A stretch of 64,000 nt of DNA, from contig JAENWA010000036.1 of NCBI GenBank assembly GCA_016650295.1, positions 1 through 64,000 on the forward strand, given 5' to 3'. Below, piece by piece: positions 16,827-54,889 of this stretch (the first letter of the stretch is position 1; each line of letters begins with the position of its first letter). The DNA is from Desulfuromonadales bacterium. Its GTDB lineage: Bacteria; Desulfobacterota; Desulfuromonadia; Geobacterales; Pseudopelobacteraceae. Position numbers and translations under genes: made by a program. The notes under the pieces are model-generated. The model searched no databases. It saw only the letters and a program-made list of their open reading frames with translations, and was not told the DNA's origin.

Positions 16827-16831
16827 CGCCT

Positions 16832-17341
16832 ATGAAAAAGCCAACTATCATAACCGCCGCACAGATAAAGAAAATCCATGTCCTGAAGGGGTCGCTGGCC
16901 TTGGATAACGACACGTACCGGGCCATGCTTGCGGAGCAATTCCGTGTGGCCTCTTCCAAAGAGCTATCAAGCATTCAGGCCACTGCCTTTATCACCGACC
17001 TGGAACAAAAAGCGGTTGCCGCCGGGCTCTGGGAGAAGCGGAATACTTTCCCGGCCAAAGGGACAAGGCGCAACCAGGTCAAGAAGTTTGAAGACCTGGA
17101 GGCCAGGCGCGGCAACATGGCTTCACCGGCACAACTCCGGAAGATCGAGGCGCAATGGTCAGACGTGACGCGGGCGGAAACTCCGGAAACCAGGAAAAAG
17201 GCCTTGCGTCACTTCCTGGAGCGAGTGGCGAAGATATCTGACCTGCGCTTTCTGGATGCCGCCGGAGCGGGCAAGGTTATCAACGCCTTGACCGTGATGC
17301 AGAGACAGGTTGAACCAGGGAAACGGAAAAAAGCAGTTTAA
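16832..17341 (+). CDS. GemA/Mu gp16-like regulatory protein (DUF1018)
   Basis: 169 residues match the phage Mu gp16/GemA family: an N-terminal IHVLKGSLALDNDTYRAML segment, the central MASPAQLRKIEAQW motif (about residues 93-106), and a C-terminal helical region ending in a basic tail. In Mu, GemA modulates host gene expression and DNA supercoiling genes. ATG 16832 is preferred; an in-frame TTG at 16814 is possible. Its presence at this position is strong support for the Mu-like nature of the element. Confidence 0.82.
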   Translation: MKKPTIITAAQIKKIHVLKGSLALDNDTYRAMLAEQFRVASSKELSSIQATAFITDLEQKAVAAGLWEKRNTFPAKGTRRNQVKKFEDLEARRGNMASPAQLRKIEAQWSDVTRAETPETRKKALRHFLERVAKISDLRFLDAAGAGKVINALTVMQRQVEPGKRKKAV

Positions 17342-17364
17342 CTTTACGATCAGGGGACAAGCTA

Positions 17365-17595
17365 ATGAGCAAACCAATTAACATTTTTGATGAAATGGAT
17401 AACAGCATTTCCATCGTTGCTTTTATGAATACCTCACTTGTTTCAATATCTGCCCAAAAAATGCAGCTTGGCGAGGATGAGATAAGCGGTATGCAACAGA
17501 TCCTTTTCAACCTGGAAGATAAATTGAGGGGTATGGACGACTTTCTAACAGATCACATGAAGCGGGACAAAGCAGCGCCTGAAGGCAAAGCTTAA
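17365..17595 (+). CDS. Hypothetical small protein
   Basis: 76 residues, soluble and acidic in the middle (LGEDEISGMQQILFNLEDKLRGMDDFL). ATG 17365 has AGGGGA upstream. Nothing recognisable. After it, 17596-17738 is non-coding and contains GCAAATTTGC followed by a T-run near 17684-17699, possibly a weak terminator. Confidence 0.6.
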   Translation: MSKPINIFDEMDNSISIVAFMNTSLVSISAQKMQLGEDEISGMQQILFNLEDKLRGMDDFLTDHMKRDKAAPEGKA

Positions 17596-17738
17596 AAATG
17601 ACCGTAGAGGGGTTTTAACCGCCAGGGCATAGCAGGGGGTGAGGGGTGCATTGAAACGTAAAGAGTTAACAGGTGGTTAAAAGGCAAATTTGCGGTTTTT
17701 GAATAACATGCAGCATCACTGACCAAGGGAAACCCACT

Positions 17739-17945
17739 ATGAAAAAGATTCAGGAGATTCCTATCCGTATTGAAATTATCAACGGCAACCCCCGGTTCAC
17801 ACATCACAGCCTGGAAATACTGGAGAGCTTCGGGATTGCGGCGAGGGGAAGCGGAATCTATATCGCGAAGTCCGGATATATCGACAGGGGGATTGTGGTG
17901 AGGCAGCCAGAAAACGGCAACATCAATGACAAGGGGGATTTATAA
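17739..17945 (+). CDS. Hypothetical small protein
   Basis: 68 residues starting at ATG 17739, preceded by AAGGGAAA. It has a compact alpha/beta pattern (IPIRIEIINGNPRFTHHSLEILESFGIAARG). No family recognised. It is separated by only three bases from the coiled-coil gene that follows, so the two are probably co-transcribed. Confidence 0.6.
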   Translation: MKKIQEIPIRIEIINGNPRFTHHSLEILESFGIAARGSGIYIAKSGYIDRGIVVRQPENGNINDKGDL

Positions 17946-17948
17946 GAA

Positions 17949-18542
17949 ATGTTCAAATCAAAACAAGAAATTTCGATTGAAAAGCTGAAGTCAACAATCA
18001 CCAATAAATTGAATCATTCGGCAGCAGAAGCCACACGGAAGCTGGTAGAAGCCGAAAATTCCATCACCGACCTGTCGCAAGCCATAGAAGCCGCCACTGA
18101 TAAGATGTACGAGGCTGAGATGAACCTTCAGCGGGGCCAGGCTCACACAAAGCCGGACAAAAAGGTACTTGACGCAATCAGTGCCTCGATTCTCGAGATT
18201 CAAACACTCGACGGGACTATTAAGGCTTGGAAAACAAGGCTTGAGGCTCTCCAGAAAGAGCGTGACGGGCTACTGCACGGCGTGAAACTGGAAGTTGAGC
18301 AGATCTTTGGTGCTGTCAGAGCGGAGCTTCAAAAGCAAGTCGACGCTGAGGCGGCAACCCTGATGGCGTTTCTGATCTCAGTAGAAAACGCGCTGGAAGA
18401 ATGCCGGCCGGTCGACAATTACGTTCCTTGCCTCAAAGGTGTCTCTGCTGTTGTTCCCGGTTTTGCCTATCTGTCGCACTGCAAACCGAAAGAACTCGTA
18501 AGATATCTGCACAAAAAAGCGCCCTGGTGGGTATGTAGTTAA
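17949..18542 (+). CDS. Coiled-coil protein upstream of the capsid gene
   Basis: 197 residues. The first ~130 are strongly heptad-like (TRKLVEAENSITDLSQAIEAATDKM; ILEIQTLDGTIKAWKTRLEALQKERDGLL); the rest forms a short globular tail ending WWVCS. Directly upstream of a capsid gene, a coiled-coil protein of this size would fit an assembly scaffold. That is only a positional inference, and no scaffold or protease motif is visible. The spacing to the capsid gene is 24 bases. Confidence 0.65.
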   Translation: MFKSKQEISIEKLKSTITNKLNHSAAEATRKLVEAENSITDLSQAIEAATDKMYEAEMNLQRGQAHTKPDKKVLDAISASILEIQTLDGTIKAWKTRLEALQKERDGLLHGVKLEVEQIFGAVRAELQKQVDAEAATLMAFLISVENALEECRPVDNYVPCLKGVSAVVPGFAYLSHCKPKELVRYLHKKAPWWVCS

Positions 18543-18566
18543 ATTCAGTTGTAAGGAGAAAAGGAA

Positions 18567-19568
18567 ATGGCAAAGCACTTGAGCAAAGAAATGTATTCCG
18601 AAGCGAGCCGAACGGGAGTGACCTTTACGGAGATCCTGGGAACCGTATCACCTTCGAAGATTGAGAGCCTTGATGCCTTCGAGTTTGCGCTGATGGAGCG
18701 CGGCATCAACCCGAAAAAGGGGACGGTGGAGCAGTTCTATACTTCCACTGAGAACAGCATACTTTTCCCTGAATTCATCAATCGGAACGTACGCATCGGG
18801 CTGACCCAGTCAAGCAAGAAGGAAGTGGTTCCTGAAGACCTGATTGCCACCACAGTGTTTATCGATAGCGGTCTGTATGAGGCAGTCAAGGCGGAGTTTA
18901 GCGAAAAGGAGGTTGAATACAAGAGAATATCAGAAGGCGCAAAGTTCCCCAGTGTGACCATCTCCAAAGGTGATAAGGAGATCCGCCTTGTCAAAATTGG
19001 GGTTAATCTGAATGCACCCTATGAAGCGCTGAGACGTATGAAATTGCCCTTGCTGGCGACTCATATCCAGCTTCTGGGAAGGCGGCTGAGACAGACGATG
19101 GTGGCCATAGCCGTCCACACTCTGGTTAATGGTGACGGCAACGGGAACCAGGCAACAATAAACCAGAGGGCAATGAGTTACGCCACACTGGTGGAGTTTC
19201 TGCTGGCGATGTCACCCTGGGAGTCTACGATCTGGTTCGCGAAAAAGGAACTGATCGAGGAACTGCTTCTGTTACCTGAGTTACAGGGCAGCGGGCTGTT
19301 CAATACTTCAGAGGGAGGCCTTGCGAAGCTCCTCGGCAATCCCCTGAAAAAGTTCGAATGGCCAAAAACCGATCTTGGAAACAACCAACTCTTCCAGGTT
19401 GATAAAAACGCTGCCCTGGAACTGATAAAGGAGGCTGGTTCCGAACTTGCTGAAACTGACAAAGTCATAACCCGGCAAACGGAGCAAACGTCAATCAGCC
19501 TGGTTTTCGGGATGTCGAAGATTTTCGATGAAGCGGCAATTATTTTTGAAAAATTGGTTCAACAATAG
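18567..19568 (+). CDS. Phage major capsid-like protein
   Basis: 333 residues resembling phage major capsid proteins: an N-terminal arm, the LFPEFINRNVRIGLTQ segment, a beta-rich central portion (FPSVTISKGDKEIRLVKIGVNLNAPYEAL), a long spine-helix region (LLGRRLRQTMVAIAVHTLVNGDGN) and a C-terminal strand (QTEQTSISLVFGMSKIF). The fold is probably HK97-like, inferred from the pattern only. GGAGAAAAGGA lies before ATG 18567. No portal, protease or terminase gene accompanies it, which is unusual for a capsid gene. It might serve in an incomplete particle or a satellite. Confidence 0.72.
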   Translation: MAKHLSKEMYSEASRTGVTFTEILGTVSPSKIESLDAFEFALMERGINPKKGTVEQFYTSTENSILFPEFINRNVRIGLTQSSKKEVVPEDLIATTVFIDSGLYEAVKAEFSEKEVEYKRISEGAKFPSVTISKGDKEIRLVKIGVNLNAPYEALRRMKLPLLATHIQLLGRRLRQTMVAIAVHTLVNGDGNGNQATINQRAMSYATLVEFLLAMSPWESTIWFAKKELIEELLLLPELQGSGLFNTSEGGLAKLLGNPLKKFEWPKTDLGNNQLFQVDKNAALELIKEAGSELAETDKVITRQTEQTSISLVFGMSKIFDEAAIIFEKLVQQ

Positions 19569-19690
19569 CCGGTCAATCTCAACTTGTTGCGAAACAGGGG
19601 GTTTCCCCTGTCTGCTGGAAATGGCCTACCGGCACTGATGAGCAAGGCCAAAAGTAACGGGTAATGTCGTTTAATCTGAAAGGAAAGGGC

Positions 19691-19846
19691 ATGGCACACG
19701 ACATGGATAACTTACTGAAAAGTGATGACGTGATTGTCATGGAGCAAGAAGCATACAACAATCTGCTGCAAATCATCGAGCGTCAAAAGCATGAAATTCA
19801 TACTCTTGAATTCCGGATCAAAACTCTCTTGAGTGGGGACAAATAA
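19691..19846 (+). CDS. Short coiled-coil peptide
   Basis: 51 residues from ATG 19691 (AGGAAAGGG six bases upstream). An in-frame ATG at 19664 would add nine residues. It is acidic and then helical (NNLLQIIERQKHEIHTLEFRIKTLL, a likely coiled coil). Function unknown. Confidence 0.55.
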   Translation: MAHDMDNLLKSDDVIVMEQEAYNNLLQIIERQKHEIHTLEFRIKTLLSGDK

Positions 19847-19849
19847 CCC

Positions 19850-20434
19850 ATGCACATGGCGATTTCTTCCGACGATTGGCTTGCACTTAACACACAGCAC
19901 TGCAACCGGTACCATGCCCGGATGACCCCGGCTGTCTGTACCGAGAACCAGCTAAAGACGGACAATTATCTTTGTTCCGGATGTAGCGGCCTGGAAGATG
20001 TCCAATGGGAATTGGAGCGCCGGGAACCGGTCGTTATCCCCTGTGCGCCGGAAGCTGATGACCCCATGACTCAGGCACTGGCCGGGGCACTACAAGACAT
20101 TCTCGACGGGAAAGAAGATGAAGAGCTGCCGGAGGATCCGGAAGGGGATGAACTTGATGATGAGCTGGTGGAAGAGGAGCTTAACGGATTTCACTACAAG
20201 CTTCTAGCGCTTATGGATTGCGAGCCTGAAGAACCGGAACCGGAGCGCAGGCCGAATCTGGAACATAAAAGGCCCCGGCGGGTTGCTGTGTATATGGGCC
20301 GTTGCCCTCGATGTTCCGGGTATGTGATTAATGACCCTGAAATGCAGTTTGCCGATCGTGACAATGAAGCCTATCGCTGCTTTTCCTGCGGTTGGCGGAC
20401 TTCCCCGGCCTATGAATGGAACCGGCAACAATAA
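19850..20434 (+). CDS. Acidic phage protein with cysteine pairs
   Basis: 194 residues. An N-terminal part with CNRYHARMTPAVC and CSGC could bind a metal. The central stretch is very acidic (about 75-110, rich in Glu/Asp). The C-terminal part is a zinc-ribbon-like module, with CPRCSGYV and CFSCGW about 35 residues apart. Small zinc-ribbon proteins are common among transposable phages (for example Com-type regulators), but I see no specific match. Confidence 0.65.
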   Translation: MHMAISSDDWLALNTQHCNRYHARMTPAVCTENQLKTDNYLCSGCSGLEDVQWELERREPVVIPCAPEADDPMTQALAGALQDILDGKEDEELPEDPEGDELDDELVEEELNGFHYKLLALMDCEPEEPEPERRPNLEHKRPRRVAVYMGRCPRCSGYVINDPEMQFADRDNEAYRCFSCGWRTSPAYEWNRQQ

Positions 20435-20457
20435 TTTTTGAAGAAAGGCAAAAATCC

Positions 20458-20736
20458 ATGAAAGCAACGATTACTCTTGAAGACACTGAAACGGGCAATG
20501 TAACTATTAATTGTGCATTTTCTGAACCTGTAACGGACAAAACCCAATCAGTAGCGGTATTGCTGACAATGGCAATCATGATGTGCGCTTGTAAGGCCGG
20601 TGCGGTTAACATGTACCAGCATGAGGGTTCAGAGACTCCTGGATATGCAGTGATGAATAGAAAAACTTATCGTAAAACGTTGTACATGATTGACAAACGC
20701 ATCATGGAATTTACTGGAAAACTGCATGGAAAATAA
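20458..20736 (+). CDS. Hypothetical small protein with hydrophobic segment
   Basis: 92 residues from ATG 20458. One central hydrophobic helix (SVAVLLTMAIMMCACKAGAV, about 31-50) could be a membrane segment or a buried helix. The flanking parts are polar. It ends 11 bases inside the first of two duplicated DNA-binding genes. Unrecognised. Confidence 0.55.
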   Translation: MKATITLEDTETGNVTINCAFSEPVTDKTQSVAVLLTMAIMMCACKAGAVNMYQHEGSETPGYAVMNRKTYRKTLYMIDKRIMEFTGKLHGK

Positions 20737-21067
20737 GCACGTTGCAGCCAGCGTTATCCGAGCGGAAAGGGTTTTGAAGGCGACTCTCGCAGCGCTCAAT
20801 CTGCCTGTGCGTGGCAGTTACAGCAACAAGGAAGTTTGCGATATTTTGGGTATCGGAACGGCAACCTTCTGGCGGCTGATCCGCGCGTATGGAAGGGATG
20901 GAAACGGCCGCCTGCTGCGCCCTGAATCCCTCGACTCTTTTGTTTTATCGAGCCACCGGCGCGTAAATTACGTGGAGCTTTTGGACTTTATCAGACGGAA
21001 CAACGGCCTGGAGCGTGAGGGCTTGCAGAACACGAAAGCCGGGCAACCACAAAAGGGAGACCAGTAA
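20726..21067 (+). CDS. HTH protein, first of a tandem pair
   Basis: 113 residues with a MerR/excisionase-like winged helix: VRGSYSNKEVCDILGIGTATFWRLIRAYG (about residues 27-55), followed by the RR(V)NYVELLDFIRRNN segment. It is clearly paralogous to the next gene, which shares LNLPVRGSYSxxEVCxILGI and TFWRL. It is probably a DNA-binding regulator or directionality-type factor of the element. It overlaps the preceding gene by 11 bases. Confidence 0.7.
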   Translation: MENKHVAASVIRAERVLKATLAALNLPVRGSYSNKEVCDILGIGTATFWRLIRAYGRDGNGRLLRPESLDSFVLSSHRRVNYVELLDFIRRNNGLEREGLQNTKAGQPQKGDQ

Positions 21068-21071
21068 CCAA

Positions 21072-21392
21072 ATGGACTATTCAACAAAGAATGCTATCCA
21101 GGCAGGAAAGACCATTGAGGCAGCCTTAGCAGTGCTGAATCTTCCGGTGCGTGGCAGTTACAGTCCAAATGAGGTCTGCAACATTCTTGGCATTGTTAAT
21201 CGAACATTCTGGCGGCTTACCCGGCAATATGAGCTTGATGAGAAAGGCAATTTACGGCGTCCCGATTGTCTGAAGAGCTTCCTGCTGGGAAAAAACCGCC
21301 GCGTCCCCTACCTGGAATTGGTGGATTTTATCCGAAGAAATGATGAATACCTGCGAAACAACGAGCGGAAAGACGACCAGGCTGGCCAATAA
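21072..21392 (+). CDS. HTH protein, second of a tandem pair
   Basis: 106 residues, paralogue of the preceding gene, with the same order of motifs: LNLPVRGSYSPNEVCNILGI, TFWRLTRQYELD and RRVPYLELVDFIRRN. The two copies have diverged throughout but keep length and helix-turn-helix spacing, so both are probably functional. ATG 21072 follows GGGAGA. It is followed after ten bases by the tape-measure gene. Confidence 0.7.
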   Translation: MDYSTKNAIQAGKTIEAALAVLNLPVRGSYSPNEVCNILGIVNRTFWRLTRQYELDEKGNLRRPDCLKSFLLGKNRRVPYLELVDFIRRNDEYLRNNERKDDQAGQ

Positions 21393-21402
21393 AGGAGCAA
21401 AC

Positions 21403-23508
21403 ATGGAAAGCATATTTAAACTGGGAATTTTAATCAAGATGACTGACATGGTCTCAGGGCCGATGCAGGCGATTTCGCGGAGCATGGCTGGCCTGAAAAC
21501 TAAAGCCGCTGAGCTGCAGCCTGTCTTTGACAAGTTCAAAAGCATAGGCATGCCGTTGGCGGCTGCCGGTGCGGCCATAACCGCCATGCTGACAGGGACG
21601 GTTATGGCCACGGTTGCCAGCCAGAAGGCATTAGGGGAACTCTCATCGGTAGGGGTGAAGGATCTGCGGGCGCTGGAAATTGCCGGACAGGAGTTTTCCA
21701 ATAAGTGGTCAGGAACCACCAAAGCCCAGTTTATAGCAGCCGCCTACGATATCAAGGGCGGCATTGCCTCACTGTCCGACCTGGGAGTGGCCGAGTTTGC
21801 CAAACTGGCGGCATTGACCGGCAAAGCGACAAAGAGCACTACACAAGAGATGACCAGCCTGTTTGCCACCGGCTACGGCATCTATAAGGATCAGTATAAA
21901 AACCTGAGCGACATGCAATTCGGGCAGATTTTTTCCGGTGCGATCGCAGCCGGGGTCAACATATTCAAGAGTACCGGTTCCAACATGGCCGGGGCGATCG
22001 AAAACCTTGGCGCGTCCGCCACGGTGGCCAAAATACCGTTGCAGGAACAAATCACTGTCCTGGGGATGCTGCAAGCAACCATGTCGGGGAGAGAGGCGGG
22101 CACCGCCTACAAGGCATTTTTCCGCGACGTGGGCGGGGCCGGGAAAAAGCTCGGCTTGCAGTTCTACGATGCCGCCGGCAACCTGAAGAACATAACCACT
22201 ATCATGGGGCTGTTGAAGGGCAAATTTGGCGACCTGTCGGGTGTGGAAGGCAACATTCTGCAGAAGGCCTTTTCCGATGAGTCGTATCGGATGATTTCAC
22301 AGTTGTACACCAAAACCGGCGAGCTGGGCAGCAACATCCAACTGCTCTTTGACGCCATGAAACAGGGCACCGTCTACACTGAACAAATGGCCAGCGCCAT
22401 GAACCAGGACATCGGCGCGGGCATGGGCGTACTCGGACAGCGCCTGCACAACCTGTGGGAAATCCTCGGCAAGCTGCTTATCCCTATTCTCGCGCCGTTG
22501 TTCACCTGGCTCGGCAACGGTATCCTGATTCTCCAGCGGTGGGCCGAAAAGCACGAAACACTGACCCGCGTAATCGTGGTAAGCCTGGCGGTCATCGGCT
22601 CGCTGTTGTTTATTTTGGGCGGGTTGGCGACGGTGATCGGCGTGATCGGCCTCGGAATACCGGCCGTGATAACCGGGATGGGGTTGATCAGCGGGGCGTT
22701 TGCAACGGCTACGGCCGGCGCCTGGGGGTTTGTAACAGCACTCTGGGCAACCGGTATTCCTCAAATAATTATTGGTATTGTGGCCCTGGGTGCAGGGCTG
22801 GCCTGGCTGTACATGAAATTCGAGACCGTCCAGACCGCCATCCAGTTTTTCAATTTCTTCCTGGGCTATCTGCTGGGCCAGCTCGTTAAGGTGGGCATGG
22901 GTTTTTATACCGCCCTGGCCCATCCGCTGTTGTTTATCCAATCGCTGATCTGGGGATTGGGCCAGATGCTGGGCGGCATCGGCAGTATGATGTTCAACTC
23001 CGGCCGCATGATTGTTACCACCCTGGTGGCCGGGATCAAGTCCATGGCCATGGGACCGGTCAATGCCATCAAGGAAATCTTCAGCAAGATCCGCAACCTG
23101 CTGCCCTTCTCGGACGCCAAGGAAGGTCCCCTGTCCCAGCTGACTCTCTCCGGATCACGGATCATGCAGACCCTGGGTGTCGGCATCACCGGCGCGGCCC
23201 CAGGTCTGCACAAGGCCATGGCCGGTGCCCTGGCAGGTGTGGCTCTGGCTACCTCGATCGGGATATCCCCGGCCATGGCCGCCCTACCGAAACCGCAACC
23301 GCTCCCGGTGGCCCCTGCTTTTGCGTCCGCGCCAGGCGCGACAAATGCACAAACAACGAAACTAACCACATCCGGAGACAACAGAGACGGTCGCAAAACC
23401 ATAAATATTCAACATCCGACATTTAACATAACTCTGCCAAATGTCAGCGATGGAAAGAGTTTTATGCAGGAACTACAAAGATTGGTGGAGGGGCACGATG
23501 TCAACTGA
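21403..23508 (+). CDS. Tail tape-measure protein
   Basis: 701 residues from ATG 21403 (AGGAG seven bases upstream). The N-terminal third matches TP901-type tape-measure proteins (MTDMVSGPMQAISRSMAGLK; AYDIKGGIASLSDLGVAEFAKLA; ATMSGREAGTAYKAFFRDV). Several long hydrophobic segments follow (about residues 400-480) and then a Gly/Ala-rich helical region, typical of the family. In a tailed phage it sets tail length and helps DNA ejection. No tail tube, sheath or assembly chaperone genes are found, although a nearby gene pair usually encodes chaperones upstream. It is the last protein gene of the element. Confidence 0.85.
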   Translation: MESIFKLGILIKMTDMVSGPMQAISRSMAGLKTKAAELQPVFDKFKSIGMPLAAAGAAITAMLTGTVMATVASQKALGELSSVGVKDLRALEIAGQEFSNKWSGTTKAQFIAAAYDIKGGIASLSDLGVAEFAKLAALTGKATKSTTQEMTSLFATGYGIYKDQYKNLSDMQFGQIFSGAIAAGVNIFKSTGSNMAGAIENLGASATVAKIPLQEQITVLGMLQATMSGREAGTAYKAFFRDVGGAGKKLGLQFYDAAGNLKNITTIMGLLKGKFGDLSGVEGNILQKAFSDESYRMISQLYTKTGELGSNIQLLFDAMKQGTVYTEQMASAMNQDIGAGMGVLGQRLHNLWEILGKLLIPILAPLFTWLGNGILILQRWAEKHETLTRVIVVSLAVIGSLLFILGGLATVIGVIGLGIPAVITGMGLISGAFATATAGAWGFVTALWATGIPQIIIGIVALGAGLAWLYMKFETVQTAIQFFNFFLGYLLGQLVKVGMGFYTALAHPLLFIQSLIWGLGQMLGGIGSMMFNSGRMIVTTLVAGIKSMAMGPVNAIKEIFSKIRNLLPFSDAKEGPLSQLTLSGSRIMQTLGVGITGAAPGLHKAMAGALAGVALATSIGISPAMAALPKPQPLPVAPAFASAPGATNAQTTKLTTSGDNRDGRKTINIQHPTFNITLPNVSDGKSFMQELQRLVEGHDVN

Positions 23509-25427: not shown

Positions 25428-28400
25428 ATGGTCGCCATGTCCCTTTACGAAGCCCATAAGCAATTCGCCTGGCCGTCACCGGATCAGATTCTCGATCCCT
25501 CCGGCGCCGGTCCGAATGTCTTTGCCCATCTTGCCAAGGAAAAGCTGGGAAAGGCTATTGAACGCTTGCGGGATGGCGCTGGTGTCAAGGTTGGGATATT
25601 GGCGGCGAGTCCCGAAGACGATGCCACGGAATCCCCCCTGGCAATCGTCTGTGAGTTTCAGCGGACCGCTTCGGAGAAGACCTTGCAGGAGGCGCACCGA
25701 CTGGCCTGGAACTTTAGTTATGCGCCAATGCTGATTACCATAGAGCCGGGTCTGGTCAGGGCCTGGTCATGTTGTGAAGAGCCACCCGCCGTCAACGAAC
25801 TTAACCCCCTCAAGGCACAGATCCATCGATACAAACTGAATGCTACGGCGGATCATGGCGATCTGTCATCACAAGCCGCCGGCTCCCTGCACTGGGTGCA
25901 ACTGGTTTCCGGGCAGTATTTCAAGGACAACGAATCCCACTTCAAGCGCAACCACTGCGCCGACTACCTGCTTCTGGAAAACCTGAAAGGTCTACGCCGG
26001 AAACTGATGGAAGAAAAAGGGCTTGATCAGGATATCTGCCATGACCTTCTGGCCCGTATCATCTTTGTTCAATTTCTCTTCCATCGCAAGGATTCAAAAG
26101 GCAGACCCGCGCTTGATGCAACCCGCTTGAACAGGTTGTATGAAGATCGCATATTGTCCGCCAGATATGAAGAGCTGGCGCAGATACTCGAAAATCATGA
26201 CGACAGTTACGCCCTGTTTCAATGGCTGAACAATAAATTCAACGGCGACCTGTTCCCCGGCAAGGCCCAGACTGAGGAAGAACGGCAGGCTGAATGGCAG
26301 TTGGAAAAGGACAACGTCAGGCCGGAACATCTTAGTTTGCTTGCCGATTTCATCAGTGGAAACATTGAGGTGGGCAGCGGTCAGATCTCCCTTTGGCCGC
26401 AGTATTCATTCGATGCAATCCCTATAGAATTTATCAGCAGTATCTATGAAACCTTCGTCGGCAAGAAAAAAGGGGTTGTCTATACGCCCGGCTACCTGGT
26501 TGACTTCATACTGGATGGCGTCCTGTCGTGGAACGATGAAAACTGGGATGTGAAGATACTGGATCCCGCCTGCGGATCGGGAATTTTCCTGGTCAAGGCG
26601 TATCAGCGCCTGATCCATCGCTGGAAAAAGGCCAACCGCCAAGAACCGAGAGCCGAGGTGCTGCGAGGCCTGCTGGAACGCAACCTGTTCGGCGTCGATA
26701 TCGACCCTCATGCGGTCCGGGTGGCTTCCTTCAGCCTTTATCTGGCCATGTGTGATGCGATTGATCCGCGTCATTACTGGGATCAGGTGAAGTTTCCTCA
26801 GCTGCGAAACCGGCGGTTGATTGCGTCCGATTTCTTTGTCGATGATATCCCCGGTTTCAGGACGGAAGAGGATAAGGGGATCTATGATCTGGTAATTGGT
26901 AATGCGCCGTGGGGTAAAAACATTGCCGGTGAACCGGCAAAACAATGGGCGAAAAAGCACCATTGGGGACTCTCATATGGTGATGTCGGCCCGCTATTTT
27001 TACCGAAGGCCTCAGCGCTCATCAATGATTCCGGTTATCTGTCCCTGTTCCAACCAGCCATGAATCTGTTGTTCAACCAGTCCGGACCGGCGCAAAAATT
27101 CAGGAGCCGCTTGTTCGAAGAATTCAAGGTTGAAGAAGTGGTGAACCTTTCTGCCCTACGTTTCAGCCTGTTTGATAAAAAAGCTATTTCACCCGCCTGC
27201 ATTATCACCATGCGTTCCTGTGCGCCGGATGCCGAACCACTTACCTATATCTGTCCCAAGCCCACATGTTCCAGCTCGGACGATTACCGGGTGGTCATCG
27301 AGCCGCACGATGTGAACAAGGTGTATCCGCATGAAGCCGTGACAAACGCCTTGGTCTGGAGTGTCCTGATGTGGGGTGGGCGGCGTGATTTATACTTAAT
27401 CAAAAGGTTGCAGGAAGCAAACTGTTTATTGAAGCTTGAACGAGAGAAGGTCGCAATTACGCGAGAAGGAATTATACGTGGTGGCGATGGCGCCAAAAAG
27501 AACCATGTAGCGACTCTTGAAAGGCGAATTTTAGAGACAAAAAGTTTTCCCGAAGGCACCTTCATGTACTTGGAAGACAGCAAGCTACCCGTTAATAAGA
27601 ACCCATACACTCATCGTCTTACCGATCTAAATGCATTCAGTTTGCCTCAATTGATTCTTAAACAGAGCTGGCAAAAAAATGATTGGCGGTTCCAGTCAGT
27701 CATTGTCAAAAGTTCTGAAAATGAAAATGGCATTGTCTGCGATGACAGCTATGTCAGCGTTCATATCGCTGGCGAAAAATCCAAATGGCTTGAATCCGCA
27801 TGTCTCAGCTACAATAGCAAGGTTGCGGTTTATTATTTGTTGTTGGCGAGCGGCAGATTCGCCTCGTACAGGCCTTCCATCAATGTTGAAGACATGTTAA
27901 GCGTTCCGATTCCCAATCCAGACAACATCTCACTTGCGGACATAACGAGCTATGACGATATTGATGTCATGGTACGCAAGGCTTTTGATTTCAAAGAGAG
28001 CGAATGGACCCTTGTCGAGGATCTCTTTGCTAATACGCTGCCTGATTTTAAGGAAGGGAGCGTTTCACCGGGGAGAGCACCGACATGGAGAAAGCAGTAT
28101 TTGGAAGATGAAACCTTATCTTTGTATTGTCATTCCTTCCTGAAAGTCCTGCGGGCTGGATTTGGTGCGGATATACGTGTATCAGCCACCATATTTCAGG
28201 AGAAAGAATCGTTCCTGCCTGTCCGGATGGTTGCCATCCATTTTGACTCCTCTGGCGACGGCGATATCCGCCACGAACCAATTACCTCTCCCGCCCTGCT
28301 GGCCCGTCTTCAGGAGTTGAATACCAAGTTTATGGACATCTCCAAGGCAAAAGGTGGCATTTTCTATCAACGGGTGGTCAGGGTGTACGATTCGGTCGAA

Positions 28401-28571
28401 ATCAACGGTCAGAACGTGCCAACGGTCTATCTGATAAAGCCGGATCAAGTCCGCTATTGGACCCGCTCCATGGCGTTGCGGGATGCGGACGATGTTGCTG
28501 CGGATGCAATGTTGTGGAGGAAGCAGGCACTTTCCGACGGTGCAACGGATACGGAGCGCGTAAGTGCATAG
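25428..28571 (+). CDS. Large N6-adenine DNA methyltransferase, system A
   Basis: 1047 residues. The gamma-type methyltransferase core has motif I LDPACGSGIFLV (about residues 376-388) and motif IV NAPW (492-495; a P-to-A change from the usual NPPW). The N-terminal ~180 residues resemble the N-terminal nuclease-like domain of Eco57I-type enzymes, but the putative catalytic strand reads LAIVCEFQ, without the ExK lysine. The C-terminal ~400 residues should hold target recognition. ATG 25428 is used; ATG 25437 is an alternative. It overlaps a PD-(D/E)XK gene by eight bases, so the two form a restriction-modification-like pair. It shares segments with the second system at 51 kb. Confidence 0.85.
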   Translation: MVAMSLYEAHKQFAWPSPDQILDPSGAGPNVFAHLAKEKLGKAIERLRDGAGVKVGILAASPEDDATESPLAIVCEFQRTASEKTLQEAHRLAWNFSYAPMLITIEPGLVRAWSCCEEPPAVNELNPLKAQIHRYKLNATADHGDLSSQAAGSLHWVQLVSGQYFKDNESHFKRNHCADYLLLENLKGLRRKLMEEKGLDQDICHDLLARIIFVQFLFHRKDSKGRPALDATRLNRLYEDRILSARYEELAQILENHDDSYALFQWLNNKFNGDLFPGKAQTEEERQAEWQLEKDNVRPEHLSLLADFISGNIEVGSGQISLWPQYSFDAIPIEFISSIYETFVGKKKGVVYTPGYLVDFILDGVLSWNDENWDVKILDPACGSGIFLVKAYQRLIHRWKKANRQEPRAEVLRGLLERNLFGVDIDPHAVRVASFSLYLAMCDAIDPRHYWDQVKFPQLRNRRLIASDFFVDDIPGFRTEEDKGIYDLVIGNAPWGKNIAGEPAKQWAKKHHWGLSYGDVGPLFLPKASALINDSGYLSLFQPAMNLLFNQSGPAQKFRSRLFEEFKVEEVVNLSALRFSLFDKKAISPACIITMRSCAPDAEPLTYICPKPTCSSSDDYRVVIEPHDVNKVYPHEAVTNALVWSVLMWGGRRDLYLIKRLQEANCLLKLEREKVAITREGIIRGGDGAKKNHVATLERRILETKSFPEGTFMYLEDSKLPVNKNPYTHRLTDLNAFSLPQLILKQSWQKNDWRFQSVIVKSSENENGIVCDDSYVSVHIAGEKSKWLESACLSYNSKVAVYYLLLASGRFASYRPSINVEDMLSVPIPNPDNISLADITSYDDIDVMVRKAFDFKESEWTLVEDLFANTLPDFKEGSVSPGRAPTWRKQYLEDETLSLYCHSFLKVLRAGFGADIRVSATIFQEKESFLPVRMVAIHFDSSGDGDIRHEPITSPALLARLQELNTKFMDISKAKGGIFYQRVVRVYDSVEINGQNVPTVYLIKPDQVRYWTRSMALRDADDVAADAMLWRKQALSDGATDTERVSA

Positions 28572-29232
28572 GAGGCTGACCATCGGTGAGGCGCGCTGGC
28601 CGGAAACTACGGAGTTTTCAGCTATTGCTACTTGCTGGAACCGGAATGCCTCAACCGTTATGCTCGGGTTTGTCTGGGGCGGTTATGAAAGGCTTTGCTT
28701 GGATGTACTCCTTCACATTGATGTTGCACTTGCAGACGAACAACTGGAGCGCAGCATCACCCAGATTCTAACACCCCAAATACGCAATTGCATGTCGGGA
28801 TATGAACCCTTCCATATTGAACAGGGCGTTTACGAATATGAGACGAGGGTCTCGGCATCCGCGCAGCCGCCTTTATACGATCTTGCCTTTGTACTCAAAG
28901 CGAATCCCAGAATTATGTGGCCCTTGGAGGCCAAAGTTCTCAGGACGGATGGAGATGTCGGCAGGTACGTGAATGAAATCACTGGCAACTTCCTGACATG
29001 TCGTTACGCCCCATTTTTCGGGGAAGGCGCGATGCTGGGGTATCTGATGGCGGGTGCTTCGGCGGGTGTTTTTGGAAACATAGCAATCAAAACTCCCTGC
29101 ATCTTGGATGATCATCCTGATTTCACTTCTCGTAACCACAAGACCTCCGACCATGTCCGATCAGTTCCCGCAGACAAACCTTATCCCATCAATTTCCGCT
29201 GTCATCACATGGTCATGTCGTTGACGCCGTAG
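28564..29232 (+). CDS. PD-(D/E)XK nuclease-like partner of methyltransferase A
   Basis: 222 residues from GTG 28564, with CGGAG about six bases upstream, overlapping the methyltransferase stop. The restriction-nuclease signature is visible: Asp106 (LYDLAFVL), then Glu122-Ala-Lys124 (PLEAKVL). The fold prediction (helix, then D-strand, then ExK strand) suits a PD-(D/E)XK endonuclease that cuts DNA lacking the partner's methylation. No family name can be given. The counterpart at 54.2 kb occupies the same position but has little similarity outside the motif, so the nuclease component appears exchangeable. Confidence 0.6.
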   Translation: MHRRLTIGEARWPETTEFSAIATCWNRNASTVMLGFVWGGYERLCLDVLLHIDVALADEQLERSITQILTPQIRNCMSGYEPFHIEQGVYEYETRVSASAQPPLYDLAFVLKANPRIMWPLEAKVLRTDGDVGRYVNEITGNFLTCRYAPFFGEGAMLGYLMAGASAGVFGNIAIKTPCILDDHPDFTSRNHKTSDHVRSVPADKPYPINFRCHHMVMSLTP

Positions 29233-35635: not shown

Positions 35636-36904
35636 TTAAGGTGTTCCTTCGCGCCTCAACTTCGGCGCATTCGCCCCATAGATAGTGAGTAGAAGTTCCG
35701 TATCATCTATCAGTCGATATTCCGGTTTTCTCCCCGCCAGCAGATCGCTTTCCGTGATAATGATCGGTACTCCTTCTCCCCGTTTATCCATGAGAAACTC
35801 CCGTTCAGCTCCGGTTTCGGCCATTGCAACCGGACAACGGGCCAGAAGGCTCGTAAGAAGTTCGTTACGAGTTGCCTGTCTCAAGGGAAGGCTCTCGATG
35901 GTCATGGTATTAGGGATTGTACCGGGAGAAAACAATTCAAGCCGATCCGCAAACAGATGCATTCTGATTTTGGCGTTTTGTATCGAATAATCACGATGCG
36001 CCACGGCGTTGACGATTGCCTCGAACACCGCCCTCATGGAGAACTGGGGCTTTTCAACACGACCAGGGGACTTTTCGGCCGCTACCCGCATGTTTTTTTC
36101 GACAAATCGGCAGGCGTCGCGTATCTGTTCGTCAATCGGTCCTCGAAAATCATGCTGATCCAACTGATACGCAGCATCACGTTCTGTCCCGCTGTAACAG
36201 ACAGCCTGAATATACGCATTCGGTAACCATTCATCCGGCATTTGCGATGCCAGCAAGACACCTGAAACGGTTGGACAAACATTTCCATCCATATCCAGGG
36301 TCAGCAGCTTCAGTTTCAACAGAAATTCGCGATTATCAGCAGGAGACAAAGGCGTACGGAATCGTTGCCAGAGATCCTCACGCAGACATTCGACAGGCGC
36401 GCCGGGAACCGCCTGCTCATCGAAACGGATGATGCGAGTCTGGCTGCGCTGCTGAAAGAGGCGGGCAAGAAGGTCGGGCGTCATTTCTCGCTTGGAACTG
36501 CCGATGCGGTGGAAATATCCGTTCGAACTCTTATGAACATAGAGGCTGCGTTGGATGTCAACCCTGATGACTGCGCGCTCGGTCCCATCGCTGGCGGGAA
36601 GCAACATCTTGCGGATTCTGCAGGTCAGCGGCGGGCTGATCACATCGTTGCAGATATTGCGAAGCCAAGTTTCCACGACATCAAGCTTTTCTTCAGGAAT
36701 GCCTGTAATCGTCCTTGTTGCATCGTCTACTCCCAAGACAAAGACACCTGATGCAGAATTTGCCATGCCGGCCAGTTCATCGGACATACCGTTAGTATGG
36801 GGCTCGGATACCCTGTTCCCCTTGAATCGAAGGTCTTTCAGCTCAAGAGATGAATCCTCGCCGAGATTGATCTGTTTCAGTAAATCCTCAAGAGTATCAA
36901 ACAT
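35636..36904 (-). CDS. AlbA_2 (Schlafen-type) ATP-binding protein
   Basis: 422 residues. The N-terminal Schlafen AlbA_2 domain (about 10-145) includes SSLELKDLRF, MANSASGVFVLGVDD and NGYFHRIGSSKREMTPDLLARLF. It is followed by the divergent HATPase_c_4 region (FEAIVNAVAHRDYS, about 290-303; GTIPNTMTIESL). Related proteins are annotated as putative transcriptional regulators, and some occur in phage-defence loci. GAGGTGA lies seven bases before ATG 36904, and the PHP-ATPase gene ends only nine bases upstream, so they are one operon and probably one system. DNA or RNA cleavage by the AlbA_2 domain is possible but not shown by motif. Confidence 0.85.
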   Translation of the reverse strand: MFDTLEDLLKQINLGEDSSLELKDLRFKGNRVSEPHTNGMSDELAGMANSASGVFVLGVDDATRTITGIPEEKLDVVETWLRNICNDVISPPLTCRIRKMLLPASDGTERAVIRVDIQRSLYVHKSSNGYFHRIGSSKREMTPDLLARLFQQRSQTRIIRFDEQAVPGAPVECLREDLWQRFRTPLSPADNREFLLKLKLLTLDMDGNVCPTVSGVLLASQMPDEWLPNAYIQAVCYSGTERDAAYQLDQHDFRGPIDEQIRDACRFVEKNMRVAAEKSPGRVEKPQFSMRAVFEAIVNAVAHRDYSIQNAKIRMHLFADRLELFSPGTIPNTMTIESLPLRQATRNELLTSLLARCPVAMAETGAEREFLMDKRGEGVPIIITESDLLAGRKPEYRLIDDTELLLTIYGANAPKLRREGTP

Positions 36905-36913
36905 GAGTTCACC

Positions 36914-46522: not shown

Positions 46523-46525
46523 GCT

Positions 46526-50934: not shown

Positions 50935-51014
50935 ACGAATATTTCGTGCCATGACGTATTCTGTCCGACAAGTGTGTTAAGTTTGAAAAACAGCTCTGAT
51001 TGCCAGGAATCCCC

Positions 51015-54000
51015 ATGAACACATTGGACATTTTATGCAGGGAGTTGGATTTTCAAGGCGGCTGCCTTTTGCCCGCCACGGACTCTCCTTGTGCGTGCAA
51101 ACCGGATGACTGGTTGGAGAAAGGAGAGTGGCTTGCCGCTGCAAAACGTGCAGGAGCTGAGAAACTTTTCTTTGTTGATAACAATCCCGTGGCTGTCTTC
51201 GCCGAATGTGGAGCCGAGATTGTCAATAAAATAAGGGCATTCAACAAGGTGTGGTGCCTTGCCCGCCCTCGTCTATTTTTTCTTGCTTCAGAGGGTGAAA
51301 TCACCGTCTATGACTTGGCTCAAAGGCCGGTCAATGAAAACGACGCAGACGACTGGAAAAATCTCAAAAACCTGGAGACCCTGAAAAATATTCGGGAAGC
51401 GGCAACAAAGTTGGGGCCGTTTCACCGTGACAACATCGAATCCGGTCGCCTGTTCGGAGAAATACATTTCGGGGATCTGAAGAATCGTGCGGACCAGGCC
51501 CTTATTCGTGACCTGAAGACCGTTCGTAGGGAATTGATAAACGCCGGTTTGTCAGGGGAACATGTACGTTTTGCCCACGCTCTTATCGGCAGATCCATCT
51601 TTATCCGTTACCTGGAAGACCGCGGAGTTTTGACGGAAAAGTATTTCAGGAATATTGCCGCGCAAAAGACCGGATGGACCGAACTGCTTCGTTTTACTGA
51701 TAGCGGTACGGGCATTGACTTTGCAACTCACCGGAGCTTCTATCCAAGAATTCTCGCAAACAAAGAATTTACGTATGCACTGTACAAGCGGCTTGCCCGC
51801 GATTTCAACGGCGATATGTTTCCGGAAGATGCAAGTGAAGAAGGGATTGTTTCCCAAGACCACCTGTCATTGATACAAAATCTCCTTTATGGTGATACGG
51901 ATAAAAACAGGAAACTTTTCTTCTACTCATATAAGTTCGACATCATTCCTTTAGATCTTATCAGTTCAATTTACGAAGAGTTCTATCACAGCTCTGCCCC
52001 AACAGTTGACAAGAAGAGCATGGCCCGACAGGATGGCGCATTTTACACTCCCCCGGTCCTGGCCGAGTTCGTCCTCTCCCGTGTACTTACTTCCAAAATT
52101 CTGGCGAAAAAACCGCGTGTACTCGATCCGGCCTGCGGTTCCGGCATCTTCCTGGTCGAGGCGTTTCGACGGATCGTCCGGCATCATTGGCGGGAGGCAC
52201 GGGAAGTTCCCACCTTTGACGTTCTGAAGACAATTCTCAGGGATCAGATAGCCGGTATCGAGGTTAACAAGGAAGCGGCACGGGTCGCGGCTTTCAGCCT
52301 GTATCTTTCCATGCTTCATTATCTTGATCCTCCTGCCATAGATCAACAGATCAGACTCGGGAATAAATTGCCAAATCTGGTTGCGTCTGATAGCCGCTCA
52401 TCGAACCATTTCCACTGCATACTTCCTCAAAATACCTTTGATACCGGCCTGATTGAGGCAAATCCACTTTGGAAAGAGCGCTTCGGTCCCGGCTGTGCCG
52501 ATGTGGTAGTGGGCAATCCGCCATGGGGTGATCCTGGCAAAAAGGCGGATGAGGCGACAAAGGCCAGGCAAGCTGTGATGCTTGACTGGTGTAAAGCCAA
52601 CAATAAGCCCATTGGAGATAATGAACCGTCGCAGGCCTTTCTTTGGCGGGCCAACGAGCTTGTCAAGGACAATGGGAATGTCGGCTTATTAATTTCAGCC
52701 GGTGCGCTGTTCAAAATCAACCGCACATCTAAAGAATTCAGGGATAAATGCTTTAAGGAATTAAATATTAAAGAGGTCTACAACTTTGCACACGTCAGAG
52801 AATACTTCTTCAAAGGGGCGATTTCACCGTTTGTCTTGATGTTAAGCGAGAAAACAGCAGAAGCGTCAGGTCCAATCTCATACTGGTCTGCAAGAGAATC
52901 AAATTCTCTGGAGGCGACACAAGCCATTCTGTTTTCGAAATACGATCATGCATATCTTAGAGATTTATGCGTGACTGATCACAAGGTGTGGAAAGCCCTC
53001 TGGTGGGGTAATGAAAAAGATATTGACCTGTTATCATCGGTATCAGAGCGCAAACACCTTGTTGATTTCGTTGATAGATCTTCATGTGGGCGGGGATTTG
53101 AGACGCATGGAAACAAAGATGCATCAGACATAAGCATGTTTCAGAGTCTACCTCACGATCAATTCACAAAATATGACAGTTTTGACTTCGATAAATTTGA
53201 AGATCCACCGAGCACTATATATAGGCTTGGTAATCTGAAATTATATACGGGAAAAAGAATATTAATTCAGCGTGGAATACGAGAACGATATGTTGATAAA
53301 GGCCAGATTATAAGCAGGTTTGAAGACGAAGACTTCTGTTTCAGTGAATTACTTTATGGATTAGTTTTGAAGGATAACTGCGACCAACAATACAAATTGA
53401 TATTGGGAGTCCTCTGGTCATCGCTGGCAAGATATTATTTTTTCATGACCTCCGGTACCTGGATGCCGTGGCATCCCAAAATTCATTTAGACGATATTCT
53501 TGGTTTGCCGATCAGCTATTGCAAAACGGATAATAATGTGGATCGGGTTATTGCCGTGGTTAATAAACTACGCGACTATCATCCCCCAAAATGGGATCTG
53601 CTTCACCCTACAGGTATCCCAGAAGAAGAGATCGAAGCTCAACGCAGGCAGTGGGAAGCCGAGCTGGATGAGGCGATTTTCGAGCTCTACAGGCTTAATG
53701 ATGAAGAAAGAGATTTGATAAGGGACTGCTGCGAGGTAACTCTGCCGTTTTTCTACAAGCCGTTTAGCAGCGTTGGGGTTACGCCGGCTGTCAAAGGAAG
53801 TGATCTATCCTGGATTGAGACTTATGCCAGGATTTTTGGCCGACGATGGAATGCTTATCTGGCAGAAGGTCAGGAAATGCGTGCCGACGTTCATGTGGGC
53901 GCACATGGGAACATGCTTGCTGTCGAGTTTTATCCCGCCGACAAGAATGACCCATGGGAGCTGAAACCAAAAGACGATTCCTGGAGCCGTATCCTTGAAC

Positions 54001-54206
54001 AGATTGGGGATAAACTGCCTCAGCCGATGGGGACATCACGGATTCTGCTCGATGGCTTGGTGCACGTTATTTCCAATGACGGGATTATCATCATAAAGCG
54101 GAACGAAAAACGTTTCTGGTCCCGCACACTCGCACGTGAAGACGCGGATGCAACCTTATGTAAGCGCATGATTGACACCATGCCCGACAAGCGAGGGCTT
54201 TGTTAG
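51015..54206 (+). CDS. Large N6-adenine DNA methyltransferase, system B
   Basis: 1063 residues from ATG 51015. Motif I LDPACGSGIFLV (about 369-381) and motif IV NPPW (501-504) define a gamma-type N6-adenine methyltransferase. The N-terminal domain (AEKLFFVDNNPVAVFAECG, about residues 45-65) resembles the degenerate nuclease-like domain of the first system. The stretch FDIIPLDLISSIYEEFYHS aligns with FDAIPIEFISSIYETFVGK in system A, showing common origin, although the C-terminal recognition half differs. It overlaps a PD-(D/E)XK gene by one base, giving a two-gene restriction-modification-like unit. Confidence 0.87.
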   Translation: MNTLDILCRELDFQGGCLLPATDSPCACKPDDWLEKGEWLAAAKRAGAEKLFFVDNNPVAVFAECGAEIVNKIRAFNKVWCLARPRLFFLASEGEITVYDLAQRPVNENDADDWKNLKNLETLKNIREAATKLGPFHRDNIESGRLFGEIHFGDLKNRADQALIRDLKTVRRELINAGLSGEHVRFAHALIGRSIFIRYLEDRGVLTEKYFRNIAAQKTGWTELLRFTDSGTGIDFATHRSFYPRILANKEFTYALYKRLARDFNGDMFPEDASEEGIVSQDHLSLIQNLLYGDTDKNRKLFFYSYKFDIIPLDLISSIYEEFYHSSAPTVDKKSMARQDGAFYTPPVLAEFVLSRVLTSKILAKKPRVLDPACGSGIFLVEAFRRIVRHHWREAREVPTFDVLKTILRDQIAGIEVNKEAARVAAFSLYLSMLHYLDPPAIDQQIRLGNKLPNLVASDSRSSNHFHCILPQNTFDTGLIEANPLWKERFGPGCADVVVGNPPWGDPGKKADEATKARQAVMLDWCKANNKPIGDNEPSQAFLWRANELVKDNGNVGLLISAGALFKINRTSKEFRDKCFKELNIKEVYNFAHVREYFFKGAISPFVLMLSEKTAEASGPISYWSARESNSLEATQAILFSKYDHAYLRDLCVTDHKVWKALWWGNEKDIDLLSSVSERKHLVDFVDRSSCGRGFETHGNKDASDISMFQSLPHDQFTKYDSFDFDKFEDPPSTIYRLGNLKLYTGKRILIQRGIRERYVDKGQIISRFEDEDFCFSELLYGLVLKDNCDQQYKLILGVLWSSLARYYFFMTSGTWMPWHPKIHLDDILGLPISYCKTDNNVDRVIAVVNKLRDYHPPKWDLLHPTGIPEEEIEAQRRQWEAELDEAIFELYRLNDEERDLIRDCCEVTLPFFYKPFSSVGVTPAVKGSDLSWIETYARIFGRRWNAYLAEGQEMRADVHVGAHGNMLAVEFYPADKNDPWELKPKDDSWSRILEQIGDKLPQPMGTSRILLDGLVHVISNDGIIIIKRNEKRFWSRTLAREDADATLCKRMIDTMPDKRGLC

Positions 54207-54889
54207 TGGCACGACATCTCCTCTCCTCTTTTACTGATTTATGGATGCAGCATGAGCGGCTTTATCTGGAGGTATTTTCAGCAGCGCTCTTAAAGCTTGC
54301 AGAGCAAGTACCATCCTTGGCCAATGAAGATGCCATTTCGGAAGAATTGTGTGTTTTACTGAATCAGGTTTGCTTTGAAATGGGAAAATATCGAAACGTT
54401 GAGGTAAGAGTACCGGTCTGGGAGCGCCCGATTCAGCCTGTTGTCTGGGAAGAACTCAAAGGGGGCAAGATTAGAAAGCGACCGGATTTTTGCTGTAGCT
54501 GTCTGAACCGCTTTGCATTGTCAGCCGAAGAGCATGAAATATCCCTTCACATAGAATGCAAGCAACTTGGAGAACCAACCAGCAGTTCGTGGGTATTGAA
54601 CGAGAACTATGTCAAGAATGGGATCAAGCGCTTCGACTCAGCAACCCATGAATACGGCAAACGTGCGCCGTCAGGTCTAATAATAGGTTATCTCGTCAAC
54701 ATGACCCCGGAAACCGTGCTTGCCGAGGTGAGCGGCCATCAGAAGAAACATCTGCCGGACAATCCTGATATCGAATTTGAATTTAGAGGCGGAAAGCTGT
54801 TTACGTCACGCCATTCATTAACGAGGAAATATGTTATTCCTGAACGTTTCGACCTCGTTCATCTATGGGCGGATTTGAGAATATCGTAG
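54206..54889 (+). CDS. PD-(D/E)XK nuclease partner of methyltransferase B
   Basis: 227 residues from GTG 54206 (GAGGG eight bases upstream), overlapping the methyltransferase stop. The catalytic signature is complete: Asp94 (KRPDFCCSC), then Glu117-Cys-Lys119 (HIECKQLGEP) with the supporting helix. Restriction of unmethylated DNA is the most likely function. It corresponds in position to the nuclease gene of system A but shares little sequence with it. Confidence 0.7.
   Translation: MARHLLSSFTDLWMQHERLYLEVFSAALLKLAEQVPSLANEDAISEELCVLLNQVCFEMGKYRNVEVRVPVWERPIQPVVWEELKGGKIRKRPDFCCSCLNRFALSAEEHEISLHIECKQLGEPTSSSWVLNENYVKNGIKRFDSATHEYGKRAPSGLIIGYLVNMTPETVLAEVSGHQKKHLPDNPDIEFEFRGGKLFTSRHSLTRKYVIPERFDLVHLWADLRIS

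What the first reader, a model, noticed from the sequence alone, without database searches (positions are those of the whole stretch)
25428..29232. System A: large methyltransferase with inactive N-terminal nuclease domain plus separate PD-(D/E)XK gene
The N-terminal domain looks like that of one-piece Eco57I-type enzymes but lacks the catalytic lysine (CEFQ). An overlapping small gene provides D106 and E122xK124. The motif IV variant NAPW is also unusual. This suggests a split restriction enzyme whose cutting function has moved to a separate gene.
Basis: partly seen in the sequence, partly recalled or inferred. Interest (0 to 1): 0.6.

Follow-up and report, generated by a model that had tools for sequence, protein, structure and literature searches.

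The report
Restriction enzyme split across two genes
Two overlapping bacterial genes appear to encode a DNA-marking protein that recognises a target and a separate small DNA-cutting protein that goes with it, a widespread pairing that I could not find described and that a defence-gene library labels as a one-piece enzyme.

Summary
Window 25428-28571 encodes a 1047-aa Eco57I-type adenine methyltransferase. It overlaps by 8 bases a 222-aa gene (28564-29232) with E62, D106 and E122-x-K124.

The small protein is a real family. E62, D106, E122 and K124 are invariant in 22 aligned members, and 22 of 22 relatives lie directly behind a homologous methyltransferase. Its predicted structure resembles PD-(D/E)XK restriction nucleases. 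A profile built without its own subfamily finds it again. The same genome holds two further pairs (B in this window, C elsewhere), and plasmids, prophages and other bacteria hold more. These methyltransferases share a C-terminal signature, and 6 of 6 new small-gene hits in 398 further genomes had such a partner.

The N-terminal domain lacks a nuclease triad. Its fold is ambiguous, so "a nuclease domain that lost its lysine" is possible but not shown.

In the closest relative the target-recognition part of the methyltransferase differs sharply (53% identity against 83-90% on either side), while the small protein stays 75-77% identical. This suggests that the nuclease takes its target from the methyltransferase.

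Verdict: a two-gene restriction-modification system with the cutter in trans, a new variant of a known kind. No experiment supports it yet.

The parts
25428..28571 (+). Large gene: gamma-class (Eco57I-type) N6-adenine methyltransferase with its own target-recognition region, 1047 aa
   Evidence: Pfam Eco57I E 9e-17 and N6_Mtase E 2e-10; PADLOC REase_MTase_IIG E 3e-54; 19-row family alignment
25428..25832 (+). N-terminal domain (residues 1-135): no conserved nuclease triad; fold ambiguous
   Evidence: AF2 model of residues 1-150, pLDDT 86; fold searches
26562..26582 (+). Methyltransferase motif I, DPACGSG (SAM binding)
   Evidence: sequence; conserved
26901..26912 (+). Methyltransferase motif IV, NAPW (19 of 22 rows NAPW, 3 NPPW)
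26870..28130 (+). Mosaic segment (motif IV through the target-recognition region) that differs sharply from the nearest relative L004 while both flanks and the small gene stay similar; edges approximate
   Evidence: DNA identity profile, protein bins, identities and trees
28434..28502 (+). C-terminal signature (IKPDQVRYWTRSMALRDADDVAA) of the paired methyltransferases; candidate docking element (inference)
   Evidence: 12-row alignment; searches
28564..29232 (+). Small gene: PD-(D/E)XK-type nuclease, 222 aa, overlapping the large gene by 8 bases
28570..28575 (+). AGGAGG, Shine-Dalgarno-like, at the gene junction; GTG at 28564 is a likely start (a start codon lies at the same offset in several relatives)
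   Evidence: sequence; starts in relatives
28747..28749 (+). E62, conserved acidic residue on a helix before the core strands
   Evidence: invariant in 22 rows; in helix 58-76
28879..28881 (+). D106, start of a core strand
   Evidence: invariant in 22 rows; next to strand 107-111
28927..28935 (+). E122-A-K124, candidate catalytic (D/E)xK on the next strand
   Evidence: invariant in 22 rows; in strand 118-126
51000..54206 (+). System B methyltransferase, paralogue of the large gene (26% identity over a 776-column alignment)
54200..54889 (+). System B small nuclease, overlapping the System B methyltransferase; RPD...HIECKQL

Best explanation
This is a two-gene restriction-modification system. 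The large protein recognises a DNA sequence and methylates an adenine in it. The small protein is the DNA-cutting subunit. It has little or no site specificity of its own and is brought to unmethylated sites by the methyltransferase, perhaps by docking near its conserved C-terminal tail, in the way a type I R subunit joins its M-S core but without a translocase motor. Shown here: the genes, the conserved candidate catalytic residues, the restriction-type predicted fold, the reciprocal pairing, the overlapping or adjacent gene order, the shared C-terminal signature, and one case of a mosaic recognition segment with an unexchanged nuclease. Inferred: nuclease activity, methylation, complex formation, docking through the tail, and recognition by the methyltransferase alone.
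For: Invariant E62, D106, E122, K124 in 22 rows. AF2 model pLDDT 82.7, pTM 0.81; of the 50 VIA-align rows nearly all are PD-(D/E)XK restriction or related nucleases, best OkrAI Z 7.5, rmsd 4.4, 141 residues. Homology to the other small families: hhalign 97.4%, E 1.4e-11; a profile with no System A sequence finds the window gene at E 1.2e-4 and System A genes in 5 of 6 other genomes at E <= 1e-6. Pairing, small gene first: 22 of 22 System A relatives (L003-L024) have the methyltransferase directly upstream (incomplete or broken in L005, L012, L013, L022); 6 of 6 new hits in 398 genomes of another phylum. Methyltransferase tail first: 10 of 10 strong places (3 of them in the window's own genome) have the small gene, 2 of them incomplete; 21 of 21 plasmid regions fetched, out of 51 matching records. 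Mosaic: window against L004, core 90.3%, recognition segment 53.0%, C-terminus 83.2%, small protein 77% or 75% in the alignment; trees pair the two at 100/100 (core), 96/99 (C-terminus) and 100/99 (small), with path lengths 0.098, 0.19 and 0.35 against 1.28 in the segment.
Against: Fold scores are in the range that can arise from a common arrangement (Foldseek best E 0.014; Z under 8). No complex was modelled. The mosaic rests on one clear pair; in 11 related plasmid systems the recognition region is as conserved as the rest, and in the window pair the segment tree does not reject sisterhood (support 31/65). The C-terminal signature as a docking site is inference only.
Confidence: 0.62

Rival explanations
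1. An ordinary type II system: the small protein is a stand-alone, sequence-specific restriction enzyme that recognises the same site as the methyltransferase by itself.
For: Size and predicted fold are like EcoRV, BamHI, OkrAI and BstYI. Separate REase and MTase enzymes are a usual type II layout (PMC6158711, passages seen). In the plasmid group the small protein diverges in step with the whole methyltransferase.
Against: The window/L004 recognition segment is 53% identical while the small protein is 75-77% identical. The pairing with one methyltransferase type bearing one C-terminal signature holds across very divergent families.
Confidence: 0.22
2. The pair descends from a one-piece type IIG enzyme whose N-terminal nuclease decayed after a second nuclease took over.
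For: PADLOC type IIG models cover these methyltransferases, in two cases nearly end to end. The E76 place is acidic in 18 of 21 rows. The N-terminal model has weak HsdR and BpuSI resemblance.
Against: Best structural matches of the N-terminal domain are not nucleases; no active relative of that domain was found; lysine in 1 of 21 rows and no conserved aspartate.
Confidence: 0.35
3. The small protein is a nuclease that acts on modified or invading DNA independently of the methyltransferase (a linked second defence, type IV-like), or a suicide effector.
For: Model also resembles McrC, Can2/Card1 and NucC.
Against: Pairing with one methyltransferase type and overlapping or adjacent genes; 3 methyltransferases and 3 small genes, paired, in the window's own genome.
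Confidence: 0.07
4. The small protein keeps the nuclease fold but is an inactive partner needed for methylation or stability.
For: Other inactive restriction-type domains exist in defence proteins (PMC12839542, passages seen).
Against: The four residues are invariant in 22 rows; the other small families keep the helix glutamate and E-x-K invariant in 15 rows.
Confidence: 0.05

Closest known systems
Type IIG enzymes (Eco57I, BpuSI, MmeI)
   Same: Gamma-class adenine methyltransferase with its recognition region in one chain of about 1000 aa; PADLOC labels the large protein type IIG
   Different: In type IIG an R domain sits at the N-terminus of the same chain (PMC3874165, passages seen); here the N-terminus has no nuclease triad and the nuclease is a separate gene
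Type I systems (HsdR + HsdM + HsdS)
   Same: Nuclease in its own subunit, working with a methylating and recognising core (inferred)
   Different: M and S are one chain here; the small protein, 222 aa, is too short for the motor part of HsdR
Type II M + R pairs (e.g. PaeR7I, TaqI; recalled)
   Same: Genes for a methyltransferase and a small nuclease side by side
   Different: Much larger methyltransferase with a conserved C-terminal signature; evidence that recognition may lie only in the methyltransferase
BcgI, CspCI, BsaXI (RM + S)
   Same: A type IIG-like enzyme divided over two genes
   Different: There the specificity part is the separate subunit (PMC4081073, passages seen); here it is the nuclease
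R.BspD6I heterodimer
   Same: A small catalytic subunit without its own sequence specificity (PMC4081073, passages seen); its structure is among the matches, Z 6.0, rmsd 3.7, 124 residues
   Different: Its partner is a larger endonuclease subunit, not a methyltransferase
BREX PglX/BrxX
   Same: Related methyltransferase core (best PDB match by sequence, E 1e-7)
   Different: No other BREX gene recognised among the neighbouring ORFs; scores far below the BREX PglX cut-offs

Membership tests
PD-(D/E)XK nuclease superfamily (small protein) | Acidic residue on a helix, then D and (D/E)xK on core strands | tested here: met
   E62, D106, E122, K124 invariant in 22 rows, placed on helix 58-76 and strands 107-111 and 118-126 of the model
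PD-(D/E)XK nuclease superfamily (small protein) | Restriction-endonuclease-like fold | tested here: inconclusive
   The list is dominated by that fold, but best Z is 7.5, under the tool's 8 mark, and Foldseek E 0.014
PD-(D/E)XK nuclease superfamily (small protein) | Metal-dependent DNA cleavage | not testable with these tools
   needs an enzyme assay
Gamma-class N6-adenine methyltransferase (large protein) | Motif I then motif IV in the Eco57I/N6_Mtase domain | tested here: met
   Pfam above cut-offs; DPACGSG and NAPW
Type IIG restriction enzyme | DNA-cleavage domain in the same chain, at the N-terminus | tested here: not met
   No conserved triad in 21 rows of the N-terminal domain
Type IIG restriction enzyme | Cleavage stimulated by or requiring AdoMet, cut at a fixed distance from the site | not testable with these tools
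   needs an enzyme assay
Type I restriction system | HsdR with translocase motor and separate HsdS | tested here: not met
   No such ORF recognised next to the pair, between 24.3 and 31.1 kb (by eye)
BREX | PglX with PglZ, BrxC and other core genes | tested here: not met
   PglX models score 49-67 bits against cut-offs of 400-900; the neighbours are a DnaJ-like ORF upstream and a protoporphyrinogen-oxidase-like ORF downstream (names by eye)

The most novel reading that the evidence does not exclude
A previously undescribed layout of restriction-modification, 'M-S plus R in trans': a family of methyltransferases with a common C-terminal docking tail, each served by its own small nuclease that has no specificity of its own, so that changing the recognition segment alone retargets cutting. 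It occurs in at least seven phyla, sometimes several per genome, and the large gene is at present filed as a one-piece type IIG enzyme.
Probability: 0.5. Interest if true: 0.72.

Novelty: new variant of a known kind. Interest (0 to 1): 0.58.

Why it matters
If right, genes now called 'type IIG' in defence annotation include many whose nuclease is the unnamed neighbour, and the neighbouring 'hypothetical protein' is the effector. It supplies a natural combination between type I (separate R) and type IIG (fused R), of interest for models of how these systems evolved from one another (PMC6158711, passages seen). A nuclease directed by a separate recognition protein would also make target swapping directly testable.

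Tried and rejected
Sequence searches against solved structures: the small protein, alone and as profiles A6 and A8, and the N-terminal profile A5, gave nothing useful. Pfam, PADLOC and NCBIfam had no hit for System A's small protein at E <= 1, and only weak rows far below cut-off or unrelated for the eight other small proteins scanned; PHROGs likewise for nine.

Phage records had no relative of the small protein. The N-terminal profile A5 found no convincing relative beyond its own family in 395 genomes (two other hits, at E 0.0016 and 0.0038).

I expected recognition-segment exchange to be general. It is not seen in 11 plasmid systems. I expected the segment tree to reject the window/L004 pairing. 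It does not, so the claim rests on identity and branch lengths.

Of 19 tail-profile places I counted only the ten at E <= 1e-8. The other nine (E 7.7e-6 to 7.5e-3) match only the first part of the model; I looked at 4 of them (L047, L048, L053, L054) and saw neither tail nor small gene.

Papers: eight answered searches. Passages were read in PMC4081073, PMC3526280, PMC6158711, PMC3874165, PMC12839542 (outline and passages) and PMC12429752. None of what I saw described this two-gene layout. The library lacks most subscription journals, and REBASE could not be searched.
Full report
What is there. The large ORF 25428-28571 and the small ORF 28564-29232 are on the same strand and overlap by 8 bases. 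The large protein is an Eco57I-type N6-adenine methyltransferase by Pfam and is called type IIG by PADLOC. The small protein had no match in Pfam, PADLOC or NCBIfam at E <= 1 and one chance-level row in PHROGs.

The small protein is a conserved family. A scan of genome contigs gave 20 relatives and a scan of viral contigs one, plus one plasmid; with the window this is 23 members. By the record titles and taxonomy shown they span seven phyla: Thermodesulfobacteriota, Nitrospirota, Nitrospinota, Cyanobacteriota, Planctomycetota, Pseudomonadota and Chloroflexota. In 22 aligned rows (L012 left out for a masked run) E62, D106, E122 and K124 are invariant, among 24 invariant columns. All 22 relatives (L003-L024) have a homologue of the large protein directly upstream; in L005 it is cut by the contig end, and in L012, L013 and L022 it is in pieces. 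The genes overlap or nearly touch, with start codons at a few recurring offsets.

Structure. The small-protein model (21 rows, pLDDT 82.7, pTM 0.81) has helix 58-76, strand 107-111 and strand 118-126 around the conserved residues. Foldseek gives no match below E 0.001; its best is EcoO109I at 0.014. VIA-align ranks OkrAI (Z 7.5, rmsd 4.4, 141 residues), BstYI, McrC, BamHI, SwaI, NgoMIV and, within 1.5 Z units, EcoRV and the BspD6I small subunit. Nearly all 50 rows are of this superfamily as far as the names tell; the two Rep15 rows are clear exceptions. Single scores are modest; the consistency of the list together with the invariant residues is what convinces.

A wider superfamily. The window holds a second such pair (System B, 51000-54206 and 54200-54889), and the same genome a third (System C). 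The three large proteins are paralogues (for A and B; for all). Fifteen non-A small proteins align with E43, E119, K121, Y137, G141 and H221 invariant. They match the System A profile with 97.4% probability and E 1.4e-11. A profile built only from non-A rows finds three places in the window's genome, one per pair, System A at E 1.2e-4. It finds System A members in 5 of 6 other genomes (the genome of L018 gave none).

The shared tail. Twelve aligned large proteins end in a common region in which R168, W170, A175 and D178 are invariant and the typical form is KP-x(3)-R-[YF]-W-x-R-S-x-A-L-R-D-A-D. A profile of the C-terminal region, run on 395 genomes of the phylum, gave 19 places. The ten at E <= 1e-8 (three in the window's genome) all have a small gene behind them; L041 is cut by the contig end before the E-x-K and L043 is incomplete. 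In viral contigs the same profile gave five loci, one of them the known System A contig and two of them alike; all have the small gene. In plasmids 51 records match the large protein. I fetched 21 regions and all 21 have a small gene with E-x-K downstream; several are near-duplicates, and L038 has a broken methyltransferase. As an independent test in the other direction, the small-protein profile gave 6 new places in 398 genomes of another phylum, and 6 of 6 have the tail-bearing methyltransferase upstream (in L090 the tail was recognised by eye, not by my pattern).

The N-terminal domain. In 21 System A rows the place of E76 is acidic in 18 (E 15, D 3) and N, R and K in one each. The residue two places on is lysine in one row only (L007), and no aspartate before it is conserved (counted by eye). 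Its model (20 rows, pLDDT 86) is a small alpha/beta domain. The best matches are flagellar FliF ring motifs (Z 6.7) and pheromone precursor proteins. HsdR appears in Foldseek at E 0.31 and higher, and BpuSI in VIA-align at Z 5.4 with rmsd 6.0. It is therefore unlikely to be an active nuclease of the usual kind. A decayed nuclease remains possible, and its ancestry is open.

Who reads the DNA? Window and L004 (a Desulfuromonadaceae genome) are nearest relatives in three parts: the core (residues 1-480, 90.3% identity), the C-terminus (905-1047, 83.2%) and the small protein (75% in the alignment, 77%). The segment 485-890, holding motif IV and the recognition region, is only 53.0% identical, no more than either is to several members of other phyla. 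At DNA level, in 120-base windows, identity is 73-94% before about 26870, 38-68% from there to about 28130, and then 76-88%, with a dip to 64-69% at the start of the small gene. Trees join the two with support 100/100, 96/99 and 100/99 for core, C-terminus and small protein, path lengths 0.098, 0.19 and 0.35. In the segment the path length is 1.28 and the grouping has support of only 31/65. This is best read as exchange or very fast change of the recognition segment with the nuclease left alone, which is hard to reconcile with a nuclease that recognises the site by itself. It is one case. In 11 plasmid systems no such contrast exists.

How it probably works. The methyltransferase finds and marks its site. 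When the site is unmarked, the complex of methyltransferase and small nuclease cuts. Type I enzymes work on the same principle with a motor subunit; type IIG enzymes do it in one chain. The account of type IIG layouts that I read places the R domain at the N-terminus of the methyltransferase chain (PMC3874165, passages). The form here would be another combination: fused M and S, separate R without a motor.

Annotation. PADLOC's two type IIG models PDLC03603 and PDLC03623 match all eight methyltransferases of this superfamily that I scanned besides System A, covering L035 at profile positions 30-1009 of 1022 and L059 at 119-1005 of 1016. A genome annotated with that library would call the large gene a complete restriction enzyme and leave the small gene unnamed.

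Limits. No activity, methylation or binding has been measured. REBASE and most subscription papers could not be searched, so an earlier description cannot be excluded.

Noticed in passing
window 51000-54889: A second, divergent methyltransferase and small-nuclease pair (System B) in the same window.
   Followed up: yes
L032 3124-6911 (minus strand), genome contig C31: A third pair (System C) lies between nitrogenase nifD/nifK-like genes and a 945-aa nifE-nifN-like fusion gene (names by eye).
   Followed up: partly
window 44378-49024: Type III restriction-modification genes (DNA methylase and ResIII helicase), so the window holds at least three restriction systems.
   Followed up: partly
window 35636-39682 (minus strand): A Schlafen/AlbA_2 protein next to a PHP-associated SMC/AAA ATPase, possibly another defence pair.
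   Followed up: partly
window about 12400-23500: Genes of a Mu-like transposable phage (Mu transposase, AAA partner, capsid, tail tape measure), close to the first pair.
   Followed up: partly
L033, L034, L036, L063, L064, L066, L067, L069, L070, L072; L035, L071, L075, L076, L038: Plasmid relatives have a short gene just upstream of the methyltransferase, either about 60-70 aa or about 150-165 aa (one annotated MerR-family), which may be a regulator.
   Followed up: partly
L003 9359-16612: The Methylobacterium plasmid pair lies beside SIR2, AAA ATPase and Hachiman defence genes.
   Followed up: no
L008 and L011, methyltransferase residues 485-890: Members from two phyla pair with 100/100 support in the recognition segment but are not joined in the core or small-protein trees, which leave them open, a possible second mosaic.
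   Followed up: no
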